NCBI RefSeq assembly: GCF_013394855.1
Contig: NZ_JABMLK010000001.1
Coordinates: 1,755,501 to 1,819,500, forward strand
From: Limnobaculum xujianqingii
GTDB taxonomy: Bacteria > Pseudomonadota > Gammaproteobacteria > Enterobacterales > Enterobacteriaceae
Direction of reading: 5' to 3'
DNA length: 64,000 nt
The notes below the pieces were generated by a model that was given only the letters and a program-made list of their open reading frames with translations, was not told where the DNA came from and made no database searches. Of the stretch, positions 2,834 to 20,833 are shown piece after piece (within the stretch, counting starts at the first letter, position 1; every line of letters starts with the position of its first letter). A program made the position numbers and the translations under genes.

Positions 2834-4805
<1,972 letters not shown>

Positions 4806-9159: not shown

Positions 9160-9345
9160 TAACAGCAGGTTCATCACAACCTGACACAGGCTGGCACCTC
9201 ACTCAACGTGTCGTCTGATGTTTGATAAGCTGCCGAAGCAGTGAATATCGGGTTGGTAGACGATAGGTACCATGGCTTTGGCATCATTCTAAGGCTTATG
9301 TAGCACCACAAATTGTGTTCTGACATAAAAAGGTGAATGAGCGAC
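9160..9345 (-). ncRNA. glmY: Small regulatory RNA GlmY
   Basis: GlmY is a decoy RNA that binds RapZ and so stabilises GlmZ and raises glmS expression (amino-sugar synthesis). Between glrK and purL, on the glrK strand, the sequence contains the GlmY/GlmZ signatures GCTCATTCACC, TTATGTCAG, GTGCTACATAA and GTTGAGTGAGG. The 5' end is placed about 12 nt after a sigma-54 -12 element. A 3' hairpin at 9166-9183 gives a transcript of about 185 nt, the E. coli GlmY size. The 3' end is less certain because the hairpin lacks a strong U-tract. GlmZ is the alternative identity, but the neighbourhood is that of glmY. Confidence 0.85.
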
Positions 9346-9356
9346 GCATAAAATAA

Positions 9357-18530: not shown

Positions 18531-18601
18531 CATTGACAGGCCCCGATCAACTACATTTTTAGTTAACCGAAATGGATAGCATCTTTAGGTAATGTATTAA
18601 A

Positions 18602-18648
18602 ATGGCTTTACTCATTACAAAGCGCTGTATCAACTGTGATATGTGCGA
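18602..18648 (+). other. attL with displaced native yfhL 5' end
   Basis: This stretch encodes MALLITKRCINCDMCE and then diverges into phage sequence and a stop. It matches the first 16 codons of the intact yfhL at 59966. The 14 bp TGTGATATGTGCGA (18635-18648) are identical to 59999-60012, and both lie exactly 33 bp after the ATG. This is the host half of the attachment site, where the prophage separated yfhL from its original start. Confidence 0.85.
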
Positions 18649-18666
18649 GCATGGGTATTTTTTTAT

Positions 18667-18734
18667 TTAAAAACATATAGTTATTTCCATGTGTTATAAG
18701 CTGCAAGCAACACAATTCAACTATATGTTTTTAA
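18667..18734. repeat. Perfect 16-bp inverted repeat next to attL
   Basis: TTAAAAACATATAGTT (18667-18682) and AACTATATGTTTTTAA (18719-18734) are perfectly complementary, with a 36-nt spacer. They lie 19-86 bp inside the left end. There is no following U-tract. Candidate roles are integrase arm-type or excisionase binding sites, or a cruciform. Confidence 0.7.
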
Positions 18735-18831
18735 GTAATACGCTCCGTAACACAAAAAAACCTCACCCCCTATATTCAAACCGCTTGACAAAAAACAATA
18801 AACCCGAAGGTGTAAAAAATTACAAGATTAT

Positions 18832-18861
18832 TTGACAATCGATTTAAATATCGCCTATGCT
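18832..18861 (+). promoter_or_regulatory. Promoter of the antirepressor leader
   Basis: TTGACA at 18832-18837 and TATGCT at 18856-18861 are separated by 18 bp. Initiation would fall near 18868, exactly where the first leader repeat begins. Confidence 0.6.
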
Positions 18862-18867
18862 GATCGG

Positions 18868-19082
18868 ACTAGAAATTCACAAGCGGTCATACCGCACCCG
18901 ATAGTTTTGCGGCTTTTTTATGCCTGAAAGTCAGGTATACTATCGCTCCTACGTCGGGTGGAGAGGCGTAATACAATACCCGTAAGGGGAATATGCCCGG
19001 AGCGTCTTGTGAAGCTCTAGTTGACACCCGGCACCCAACTACTAATTGGGTGAGGTAACTAAAATTCACAAGAGGTCAGACT
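18868..19082 (+). ncRNA. Structured P4/C4-like leader RNA of the antirepressor
   Basis: The leader carries two direct repeats, ACTAGAAATTCACAAG (18868-18883) and ACTAAAATTCACAAG (19058-19072). The second overlaps the ribosome site of the antirepressor. Between them CTTGTGAA (19006-19013), inside a longer match that includes TCTAGT (19016-19021), is complementary to both, so only one pairing can form at a time. Inside are a GC hairpin followed by six U (18892-18919), a CCTGA/TCAGG hairpin (18923-18935) and a CACCCAA/TTGGGTG hairpin (19032-19052). This resembles the seqA-seqB-seqC design of phage P4 immunity and the C4 RNA of P1/P7. An unstarted frame here (…HTAPDSFAAFLCLK…) looks like the Ash/Icd leader ORFs. 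Identity with either Rfam family is not proven. Confidence 0.55.
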
Positions 19083-19844
19083 ATGGCTATTAAAATTTTC
19101 AAATTCCATAATCACCCATTAAAAGCCCACTACATAGATAACCAAATTTGGTTTGAATCAGCCGATATTGCTAAAGCATTAGGCTATTCAAATCCTAAAG
19201 CAGTAACAGGCCTTTATGCCCGCTATAAAAAGGAATTTGAAGGGGGTATGTCCAAGGTACTTGATTCGAGTACCTCGGCGAATTTAAAGGCTCGCAAGCG
19301 TATTTTCTCCCTTCGCGGTGTTCATCTAATAGCAATGTTTGCTCGGACTCCCGTAGCCGAAGATTTTCGCAAATGGGTCTTAGACCTACTCGACAAAGAG
19401 GTTAAGCCTACCGTCAAAAGCAGAGGGCCTTACAAGAACAGAAAATCCGAATTACCTTGCGGTGTTTATCATCACCAGAGCAAATATAATCCCTATCGTG
19501 CTTATGCATGGAATGGCGAAAGCACTGTTTATGTTGGCTGCTTCCCTACAGTAGACGATGCTGTTGCTGCCATAGAACATTTTCGCACTACTGCGACAGT
19601 TCAGCGGCTTCCGGCAAGCGAGATAAACATCACCGGTTTAGTACCACACACTAAAGACCTATCTACCAACGCTGCGGTATCCGCGGACGGTACCCACCTT
19701 ATAGCGCCTAGTGATATGGTCGATCATTTTGCGGTATTGTTGGAAGCTGCGCAGTTTTTAGCGTGCTACAAACATGGAAAAGATCTCGCATGGGAATTGG
19801 TCGCCTTTACCCAAGAAACGGCTAAGGGTTCAGCCTCACTATAA
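19083..19844 (+). CDS. BRO-N family phage antirepressor with AP2-like domain
   Basis: A 253-residue protein. Residues about 1-110 form a BRO-N domain (IWFESADIAKALGYSNPKAV, SLRGVHLIAMFARTP, FRKWVLDLLD), the DNA- or repressor-binding part of many phage antirepressors. Residues about 125-165 (GVYHHQSKYNPYRAYAW…YVGCFPTVDDAVAA) look like an AP2-type DNA-binding fold. The C-terminal part is unassigned. AGAGGT precedes the ATG and is part of the leader repeat. It stands alone on the plus strand at the far left end, separate from CI, which resembles the immI position of P22-type phages. The likely role is inactivation of a repressor. Confidence 0.75.
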   Translation: MAIKIFKFHNHPLKAHYIDNQIWFESADIAKALGYSNPKAVTGLYARYKKEFEGGMSKVLDSSTSANLKARKRIFSLRGVHLIAMFARTPVAEDFRKWVLDLLDKEVKPTVKSRGPYKNRKSELPCGVYHHQSKYNPYRAYAWNGESTVYVGCFPTVDDAVAAIEHFRTTATVQRLPASEINITGLVPHTKDLSTNAAVSADGTHLIAPSDMVDHFAVLLEAAQFLACYKHGKDLAWELVAFTQETAKGSASL

Positions 19845-19912: not shown

Positions 19913-20833
19913 ATGAGATATTTTTTAACATCAAAAATTTTGAAATGGGAAGTTGGGACAGAAGTAGACTACAAACAGTGCCACCAACTATACGGTGGCA
20001 GCTTTGCCACTCATCCTGAAGTGCTGAATTTTCTACATTCCCGATTTGACTGTCAGCCACAATATTATGTGAGGCGTGATAATAACGGTAAGCTGCTCGG
20101 CTCCTATTGCACATGGCGAAGAAACCACCTTGCAGGGGATACAAAAGTCACAAAAATGTTAGATATGGAATATTATCCGTTCAATAAAGATGAGTTGATT
20201 TTACCCATACAAGATCAACTTAGCGTCATTATTCCAATAAAAAGTAAAATTCTGTCCCGAATAAATGCGAACGCAATACTTAATTCCTGCTTTAAAATGA
20301 ATAGTCAAAGAGGAATTTGCATTGCAAAAGGATGTGGCAAAAACGGTTTTTCATCGTCCACAAAAAACAGCAGAAACAGGGAGCTAAAGCGGTTTATAAA
20401 GGCGGGAGGGGAGATAAAAGATCAATCTGAATTATCCCCGGAAGAACTGGTGTCACTTTATTTCGAACTATTCTTTAAGCGCTGGAACAAACACCATACC
20501 AATTACGATCAGCTTGTCGATATGTTAAAAAACCTGCGCTCCTTTTTCTTCGGCCACGTGCTTTTCATCGATGGTAAGCCGTGCGCATTTCAACTGATAA
20601 TGAAAGCTGAAAGCCCTGAATGGATTAATTTTGATTACATTAATGGTGGTTACGATACTACACATAAATCGTTTTGCCCTGGAACCATTGTAACATGGCT
20701 CAACATTCAGTCCGCTTACTCATTATGTGAATCGCTTGGTAAAAAAATGCGTTATTCATTTGGTCGCCCTACTGCCGCCTATAAAAATAGATGGTGTGTG
20801 ACTGAGCCAGTAGGGCGTATTCTTTCATTATGA
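19913..20833 (+). CDS. Mig-14-like protein (prophage cargo gene)
   Basis: The 306-residue protein resembles the Mig-14 family: YGGSFATHPEV near residue 30, a DELILPI segment, RNRELKRFIKAGGEI, ELSPEELVSLYFELFFKRW, INFDYINGGYD and FCPGTIVTWLNIQSA. Salmonella Mig-14 is needed for resistance to antimicrobial peptides and for persistence in macrophages; its biochemical activity is not settled. There is no signal peptide or membrane segment, so it would be cytoplasmic or peripherally membrane-bound. It is convergent with the tail-fibre chaperone gene (5 bp apart) and oriented against the structural operon, typical of a lysogenic-conversion gene. Identification rests on recalled family motifs. Confidence 0.65.
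   Translation: MRYFLTSKILKWEVGTEVDYKQCHQLYGGSFATHPEVLNFLHSRFDCQPQYYVRRDNNGKLLGSYCTWRRNHLAGDTKVTKMLDMEYYPFNKDELILPIQDQLSVIIPIKSKILSRINANAILNSCFKMNSQRGICIAKGCGKNGFSSSTKNSRNRELKRFIKAGGEIKDQSELSPEELVSLYFELFFKRWNKHHTNYDQLVDMLKNLRSFFFGHVLFIDGKPCAFQLIMKAESPEWINFDYINGGYDTTHKSFCPGTIVTWLNIQSAYSLCESLGKKMRYSFGRPTAAYKNRWCVTEPVGRILSL

What the first reader, a model, noticed from the sequence alone, without database searches (positions are those of the whole stretch)
18868..19082. Antirepressor leader with two repeats competing for one complementary segment (P4/C4-like RNA switch)
TTCACAAG occurs at 18876-18883 and at 19065-19072, each within a longer direct repeat (ACTA..AATTCACAAG). CTTGTGAA at 19006-19013, with TCTAGT next to it, is complementary to both. 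One pairing closes a structured domain of about 155 nt; the other covers the ribosome site of the antirepressor. An intrinsic-terminator-like hairpin lies inside. The layout matches seqA/seqB/seqC of P4 immunity and C4 control of ant in P1/P7, but here it sits next to a prophage that also has a CI/Cro switch, so the phage may have two immunity systems. The exact RNA and partner appear undescribed to me.
Basis: partly seen in the sequence, partly recalled or inferred. Interest (0 to 1): 0.78.

Follow-up and report, generated by a model that had tools for sequence, protein, structure and literature searches.

The report
Antirepressor leader with antisense RNA loop
A prophage carries a small built-in RNA whose loop matches the start site of the gene behind it, a likely self-made off-switch for the phage's antirepressor, and the same design recurs, with different but matching loops, in many members of an RNA family that some papers have linked to virulence.

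Summary
The middle segment is the loop of an 88-nt RNA that Rfam holds as RF02221 'sRNA-Xcc1' (57.7 bits, cut-off 53). It is not C4 (RF01695): no hit at E<=5. In 84 of 132 nonredundant RF02221 loci the loop matches its own upstream R1 and its own downstream flank by one shared word of 6 or more nt, against 3.0% of mismatched pairings. Held-out loci: 17 of 41 (2.0% mismatched). Viral backbone-matched loop variants: 11 of 12. Layout: promoter, R1, terminator-like element, RNA, R2, gene. Targets with a known family are mostly antirepressors, some the SymE toxin. A tRNA-like end suggests RNase P release. Best explanation: a C4/P4-CI-type antisense RNA, in a separate RNA family, represses the adjacent antirepressor by covering its ribosome site and perhaps by promoting termination after R1. 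Layout and covariation are shown; expression, processing and repression here are inferred. In the papers searched I found none that links sRNA-Xcc1 to this function.

The parts
18832..18861 (+). predicted sigma-70 promoter: TTGACA (18832-18837), 18-nt spacer, TATGCT (18856-18861); start expected near 18868, so R1 would be at the 5' end of the transcript
   Evidence: 10 of 12 consensus matches; over 84 loci a promoter scoring >=9 of 12 lies in the 60 nt upstream of R1 in 77%, against 6% of 1050 control windows. No start site was mapped.
18868..18883 (+). R1: upstream target ACTAG-AAA-TTCACAAG, followed by CGG (18884-18886)
   Evidence: RNA-R1 duplex -29.3 kcal/mol against -23.7 and -23.9 for the RNAs of the two paralogues
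18883..18919 (+). attenuator-like element: GCGGT/ACCGC hairpin (18883-18895) that excludes the terminator-like hairpin CCGCA/TGCGG (18892-18912), then C and T6 (18914-18919)
   Evidence: a terminator-like stem plus T run lies between R1 and the RNA in 75 of 84 loci (3.0 expected from base shuffles), with stem variants such as CCGC/GCGG, CCAAC/GTTGG, CCACA/TGTGG
18953..19040 (+). antisense RNA domain, Rfam RF02221 (sRNA-Xcc1): closing stem, a hairpin with an AAUACAA internal loop, and the antisense hairpin
   Evidence: 57.7 bits, gathering score 53
19005..19021 (+). antisense arm: loop TCTTGTGAA (19005-19013) plus second block CTCTAGT (19015-19021); can pair with R1 and R2
   Evidence: loop columns are among the most variable of 89 aligned members (1.25-1.88 bits; the 3' tail after the closing stem is as variable)
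19058..19075 (+). R2: downstream target ACTAAAATTCACAAG running into the Shine-Dalgarno AAGAGG
   Evidence: R2 ends 10 nt before the ATG; RNA-R2 duplex -29.4 kcal/mol
19083..19844 (+). target gene: Bro-N antirepressor, 253 aa
   Evidence: Pfam PF02498 E 9.9e-14; PHROG anti-repressor Ant E 1.4e-35

Best explanation
It is a loop-antisense, immunity-type regulator built into the leader of a prophage antirepressor. One promoter makes R1 (5' end) - attenuator - RF02221 RNA - R2/ribosome site - antirepressor. The 88-nt RNA is cut from the transcript, probably by RNase P, and acts on other transcripts. Its hypervariable loop pairs with R2 and hides the Shine-Dalgarno; it also pairs with R1 and the following CGG, which frees the terminator and cuts transcription short, so the RNA limits its own synthesis. 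In a lysogen the antirepressor stays off. Loop, R1 and R2 change together, so each phage type has its own specificity. Shown here: family assignment, layout, three-way covariation, target genes. Inferred: expression, processing, action in trans, repression, attenuation, role in lysogeny.
For: Covariation: 84 of 132 nonredundant loci share a word of >=6 nt between R1, the downstream flank and the loop complement, against 523 of 17292 mismatched pairings; the loop window has >=7 complementary nt in its own downstream 60 nt in 83 of 132 (permutation mean 5.5, maximum 16 in 10000). Held-out phylum sample: 17 of 41 against 32 of 1640. Viral contigs with one of two near-fixed backbones: 11 of 12 loop variants match in R1 and R2 over 6-8 nt (no shuffle control was run on this set). 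R2 is a ribosome site: in 75 of the 84 an ATG starts 4-14 nt (mode 9) after it (searched 3-21 nt after R2, ATG preferred). Pfam families among those 75 products: Bro-N 19, P22_AR_N 9, pRha 8, KilA-N 7, AntA 6, ORF6N 4, SymE 4. Three paralogues in this genome use different loops and each RNA pairs best with its own R1 and R2. Positive control: 24 of 30 C4 loci show >=7 nt in a similar script (8.2% of mismatched pairs), and P4 shows the layout. Processing: U at -1 in 96, G at +1 in 121 and xCC after the closing stem in 117 of 132; sRNA-Xcc1 of Xanthomonas is 88 nt by RACE with a single ~100-nt Northern band (PMC2996969, passages); C4 is an RNase P product (PMC5320573, passages).
Against: 48 of 132 loci lack the three-way word, as do 24 of 41 held-out loci and one of 12 viral variants (L216). 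By another rule 19 of 132 have neither R1 nor R2, and the copy L007 in this genome has no match. Attenuation is weakly supported: blocking R1+CGG raises terminator pairing by more than one pair in 40 of 78 loci, and the paralogue L004 shows almost no competing hairpin. By duplex energy the own loop is in the best 5% for only 67 of 132 downstream flanks, so binding energy alone is not sharply specific. In the window the base at -1 is C, not the usual U. No transcript data exist for this genome. In the related Gifsy-1 locus the short R1-type RNA (IsrK) activates rather than represses (PMC4825925).
Confidence: 0.78

Rival explanations
1. IsrK-like activation: the short R1-terminator RNA is the trans-acting molecule. 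It binds the loop of read-through transcripts (or of the freed RNA), releases the ribosome site and switches the antirepressor on. It could coexist with the best explanation.
For: R1 is predicted near the 5' end of the transcript, just before a terminator-like element, as IsrK is; in Gifsy-1 short IsrK activates orf45-anrP in trans (PMC4825925, abstract, sections read). The RNA arm pairs with the R1 region at -29.3 kcal/mol.
Against: R1 carries the same word as R2, which fits equally a second target for the antisense RNA, as in P4. It does not explain the conserved tRNA-like ends of the RNA domain.
Confidence: 0.25
2. Purely cis-acting switch: the loop pairs with R1 or R2 inside one transcript, with no free small RNA. 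Some cis pairing could coexist with the best explanation.
For: The minimum-energy fold of the leader has R1 paired with the loop.
Against: RNase P-like ends; sRNA-Xcc1 exists as a discrete 88-nt RNA (PMC2996969, passages); modules with R1 and RNA but no R2 exist.
Confidence: 0.15
3. The RNA is a host-targeting trans-acting virulence regulator, as some papers on sRNA-Xcc1 suggest.
For: HrpG/HrpX control in X. campestris is cited from Chen et al. 2011 by PMC12444791 and PMC12189769 (passages; the original was not held).
Against: The loop covaries with the adjacent downstream flank in most of the loci (84 of 132), and the neighbours with a known family are mostly phage antirepressors, some SymE. 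A second role in some hosts is not excluded.
Confidence: 0.05
4. Chance repeats in an A+T-rich leader.
For: The bare 8-mer is not rare in the window.
Against: Covariation over 132 + 41 loci and 12 viral variants.
Confidence: 0.01

Closest known systems
C4 antisense RNA of phages P1/P7 (Rfam RF01695)
   Same: closing stem with two hairpins, the second with the variable loop; loop complementary to the region before the next gene in 24 of 30 C4 loci; RNase P-type 5' end (PMC5320573, passages)
   Different: no RF01695 hit in the window at E<=5; RF02221 has a conserved AAUACAA internal-loop hairpin and a different sequence, and the scans list no clan for it whereas C4 is in CL00128
P4 immunity: CI RNA with seqA and seqC (in P4, minus strand, Rfam finds C4 at 8507-8420, isrK at 8692-8615 and, below its cut-off, c4-a1b1 at 8705-8653)
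   Same: order R1-terminator-RNA-R2, with two-block targets
   Different: the P4 RNA and its leader belong to other Rfam families; no RF02221 hit in P4 at E<=0.5
Gifsy-1 IsrK-STnc1160-AnrP (RF01394)
   Same: short 5' RNA ending at a terminator, a second ~80-nt processed RNA, then an antirepressor (PMC4825925, sections and passages)
   Different: no isrK hit in the window at E<=5; IsrK is reported to activate translation
sRNA-Xcc1 (Rfam RF02221)
   Same: the same RNA family; 88 nt in X. campestris; upstream of symE in integron cassettes (PMC12444791, passages)
   Different: the passages I saw treat it as a virulence-associated or unassigned sRNA; none mentions R1, R2 or antirepressor control

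Membership tests
RF02221 sRNA-Xcc1 | covariance-model score over the gathering cut-off | tested here: met
   57.7 against 53 bits, model positions 1-87
RF01695 C4 antisense RNA | covariance-model match | tested here: not met
   no match at E<=5 in 18600-19400, permissive filters
RF01394 isrK / RF03163 c4-a1b1 leader | covariance-model match upstream of the RNA | tested here: not met
   none at E<=5; in the P4 yardstick isrK is over its cut-off (60.8 against 50) and c4-a1b1 just under (44.1 against 46.7)
C4/P4-CI-type regulation (works like) | RNA loop complementary to the ribosome site of the next gene, with compensatory changes | tested here: met
C4/P4-CI-type regulation (works like) | second copy of the target upstream, before a terminator | tested here: met
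   R1 in 98 of 132 by the rule; terminator-like element in 75 of 84
C4/P4-CI-type regulation (works like) | release of the RNA by RNase P | tested here: inconclusive
   sequence signature only: U-1 in 96, G+1 in 121, xCC in 117 of 132; the window itself has C at -1
C4/P4-CI-type regulation (works like) | repression in trans and superinfection immunity | not testable with these tools
   needs reporters or phage assays

The most novel reading that the evidence does not exclude
RF02221 modules are a portable RNA-only immunity repertoire. Copies that have lost their own target gene (tandem modules with R1 and RNA but no R2, integron-borne copies, orphan copies) persist because their hypervariable loops silence antirepressors of incoming phages with the same word, so that arrays of such modules are a memory of phage specificities without any protein. 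The conserved AAUACAA hairpin would then be a shared docking site for a host factor.
Probability: 0.2. Interest if true: 0.85.

Novelty: new variant of a known kind. Interest (0 to 1): 0.66.

Why it matters
It gives a mechanism, testable by simple loop swaps, to an Rfam family that some papers have tied to virulence (one reads 15 copies in an Aeromonas genome as possibly favouring virulence, PMC8780938, passage). If right, a good share of such calls would mark prophage or toxin-gene regulators. It also indicates that the P4/C4 design exists in at least two RNA families, that the second is spread through the window's phylum (matches in 51 of 299 sampled genomes, 36 over the cut-off), and that it sits before the toxin gene symE as well as antirepressors.

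Tried and rejected
Chance repeats: rejected by covariation. C4, isrK or c4-a1b1 membership: rejected. A check of the founding sRNA-Xcc1 locus itself failed for want of data: the SymE scan of genome contigs returned one locus, on a contig of the same length as that of the query L127; plasmids gave no SymE match and one short DNA match; Chen et al. 2011 is not held. A first duplex-energy script timed out; the smaller one gave a weaker separation than word matching (31 of 132 in the best 1%, 67 in the best 5%). My first terminator count from folds was unspecific and was replaced by pairing probabilities; a constraint had no effect and is not used. The three P1 regions fetched list no c4, so P1 was not used as a yardstick. 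Entropy at the AAUACAA motif is biased because members were selected by a pattern containing ACAA; the unselected count is AATACAA in 83 and AATANAA in 109 of 132. The automatic start-codon choice picked wrong starts in some loci and was replaced.

Full report
What is there. Reading outwards, 18832-18861 is a good sigma-70-type promoter (TTGACA, 18 nt, TATGCT; 10 of 12 matches) that should start transcription near 18868, so the first repeat (R1, ACTAGAAATTCACAAG) would be the 5' end of the transcript. It runs into CGG and then a hairpin pair: GCGGT/ACCGC (18883-18895) excludes CCGCA/TGCGG (18892-18912), which is followed by C and six T. Then comes a structured domain, and then R2, TTCACAAG running into AGG, 10 nt before the ATG of a 253-aa Bro-N antirepressor.

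The RNA is known, its function is not. cmscan of the whole window gives two matches above the cut-offs: GlmY, and RF02221 sRNA-Xcc1 at 18953-19040 (57.7 bits, cut-off 53). A permissive scan of 18600-19400 gives no C4, isrK or c4-a1b1 up to E 5. As a yardstick, a permissive scan of phage P4 (E<=0.5) finds C4 and isrK over their cut-offs and c4-a1b1 just under its own, and no RF02221. So this is not a C4 RNA by family, although the models are built alike: a closing stem and two hairpins, the second carrying the antisense loop.

Covariation, the deciding test. RF02221 was searched in sampled genomes: 37 of 295 (order), 26 of 369 (class) and 22 of 198 (family) have matches at E<=0.001; 34, 12 and 20 are over the cut-off; none of 14 named control genomes has one. 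The samples overlap in some genomes. Of 152 distinct matches listed, 150 were taken (two that lie inside other fetched stretches were left out); 4 were unusable and 14 redundant, leaving 132. In 84 of 132 the same word of 6 or more nt occurs upstream and downstream and is complementary to the RNA's own loop window; with loops and flanks mismatched this happens in 523 of 17292 pairings (3.0%). The loop window has 7 or more complementary nt in its own downstream 60 nt in 83 of 132 (permutation mean 5.5, maximum 16 of 10000) and in its own upstream 150 nt in 88 of 132 (mean 10.0, maximum 24). By duplex energy the mean for downstream flanks is -19.1 kcal/mol against -14.1 permuted, but only 67 of 132 loops rank in the best 5%.

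Replication. A later phylum sample (51 of 299 genomes with a match, 36 over the cut-off) supplied 41 new matches from the upper part of its list, all over the cut-off, 8 of them from one genome and not filtered for redundancy; L217, L218 and other listed rows were not used. With the loop window and word rule unchanged, 17 of 41 pass, against 32 of 1640 mismatched. A scan of viral contigs with two backbone patterns (a few positions left open) gave 26 stretches with 12 distinct loop variants; in 11 of 12 R1, R2 and the loop complement agree over 6-8 nt (no shuffle control on this set). The window's own word, TTCACAAG, recurs in one of them (L202). Two systems with different loops sit in one 45.6-kb viral contig (L199, L200). 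In this genome, three antirepressor leaders use TTCACAAG, CAGTAAG and ATACGAG; in a 3x3 comparison each RNA pairs best with its own R1 and its own R2. As a positive control, 30 C4 loci put through a similar script, with windows adapted, gave 24 of 30 with 7 or more nt against 8.2% of mismatched pairs.

What is controlled. In 75 of the 84 three-way loci an ATG with an open frame stands 4-14 nt (mode 9) after R2 (searched 3-21 nt, ATG preferred to GTG and TTG), so R2 sits at the ribosome site. Pfam on those 75 proteins, by number of members matching: Bro-N 19, P22_AR_N 9, pRha 8, P22_AR_C 8, KilA-N 7, AntA 6, ORF6C 5, ORF6N 4, SymE 4, and six HTH families with one member each (a protein can match several families, and the number with none was not tallied). 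SymE-like starts recur in the held-out set (L239; by eye). BLAST of the leader finds 374 of 5426 E. coli genomes and 16 phage records, among them Stx-converting phages and Vibrio phage VHML; in the five places opened the neighbour is annotated or noted as an antirepressor or Rha gene, some broken.

How it probably works. (1) Release of the RNA: at the predicted 5' end U stands at -1 in 96 of 132 (background T 33%), G at +1 in 121, and xCC follows the closing stem in 117, a tRNA-like signature as RNase P uses (recalled); C4 is known to be cut by RNase P (PMC5320573, passages; PMC11143913, passages). sRNA-Xcc1 was seen as a single ~100-nt Northern band and 88 nt by RACE (PMC2996969, passages). 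In the window the -1 base is C. (2) Pairing with R2 should block ribosome entry; this follows from position. (3) Pairing with R1 and CGG should favour the terminator: a terminator-like element lies between R1 and the RNA in 75 of 84 loci (3.0 expected from base shuffles) and CGG follows R1 in 72. With R1+CGG made unavailable, loci with three or more expected terminator pairs rise from 45 to 69 of 78, but the gain exceeds one pair in only 40 of 78, and paralogue L004 has almost no competing hairpin (6 of the 84 had no suitable T run). This step is plausible, not shown. P4 works by such termination (described in PMC4825925, section read). (4) The alternative that the R1-terminator RNA is the activator, as IsrK is in Gifsy-1 (PMC4825925, abstract, sections), stays open and could coexist.

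Results against. 48 of 132 loci lack the three-way word, 24 of 41 in the held-out set. By another rule, which asks for CGG after R1 and a start codon after R2, 78 have both, 20 only R1, 15 only R2, 19 neither. Five 'only R1' cases are followed within 22-215 nt by a second RNA-like motif and have no R2 (L015, L032, L086, L097, L107b); others have near-matches or R2 shifted to the start codon (L021, L104). One copy in this genome (L007) has no match.

Literature. Searches for sRNA-Xcc1 (18 papers listed), with SymE/RF02221 (3), with antirepressor, C4 antisense RNA, isrK and RF02221 (11), C4 terms (18 listed) and a combined mechanism search (none) showed no paper tying sRNA-Xcc1 to antirepressor control. 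Of the 18 sRNA-Xcc1 papers I saw passages of eight and only the listing of the other ten; subscription papers and preprints are largely not held. So this is not proof that nobody has said it. PMC12444791 (passages) reports sRNA-Xcc1 upstream of symE in integron cassettes and suggests a divergent regulatory mechanism. PMC12189769 (passages) lists seven copies in one Xylella strain, and isrK and C4 beside one copy in another. PMC5331693 (one table passage) lists sRNA-Xcc1 in a section on EHEC ncRNAs with low ribosome coverage. PMC8780938 (passage) reads 15 copies in Aeromonas as possibly favouring virulence. PMC5320573 (passages) already proposed for C4-type RNAs of Acinetobacter that chromosomal copies may act against incoming phages or have adopted host targets; my novel case extends the first idea to RF02221.

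Verdict. The RNA belongs to RF02221, not C4; the new point is that a majority of the sampled near relatives in this family show the C4/P4 layout. New variant of a known kind.

Noticed in passing
L153 1268-1581 (E. coli HY220605): An sRNA-Xcc1 RNA is followed by isrK/c4-a1b1 matches (both under their cut-offs) and a C4 RNA before one antirepressor: modules of two RNA families in tandem.
   Followed up: partly
L015, L032, L086, L097, L107b: Modules with R1 and the RNA but no R2, followed within 22-215 nt by a second RNA-like motif.
   Followed up: partly
L149 (G685:C2:306104-306191): An RF02221-like RNA (52.4 bits, under the cut-off) lies just 3' of what by eye looks like a CRISPR array with type I-E-like repeats (label recalled); no R1/R2 found.
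   Followed up: no
L003 about 3690-4040 (G000:C1 about 971.7-972.0 kb): An RF02221 copy without R1/R2 sits, by eye, between inverted repeats of about 40 nt; a copy with the same downstream flank occurs in another genome of the genus, L082.
   Followed up: partly
G000 C1:1014532, C1:2879174, C1:2713523: The same genome also holds three C4 (RF01695) loci, besides four RF02221 copies.
   Followed up: no
window 19913-20833: A Mig-14 family (GNAT-like) gene lies between the antirepressor and the tail-fibre genes.
   Followed up: no
window 9188-9346 (-): GlmY sRNA, 117.5 bits.
   Followed up: no
L021, L104: In these loci the R2 word sits between AAAAGGAAA and the ATG, rather than on the Shine-Dalgarno itself.
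   Followed up: no
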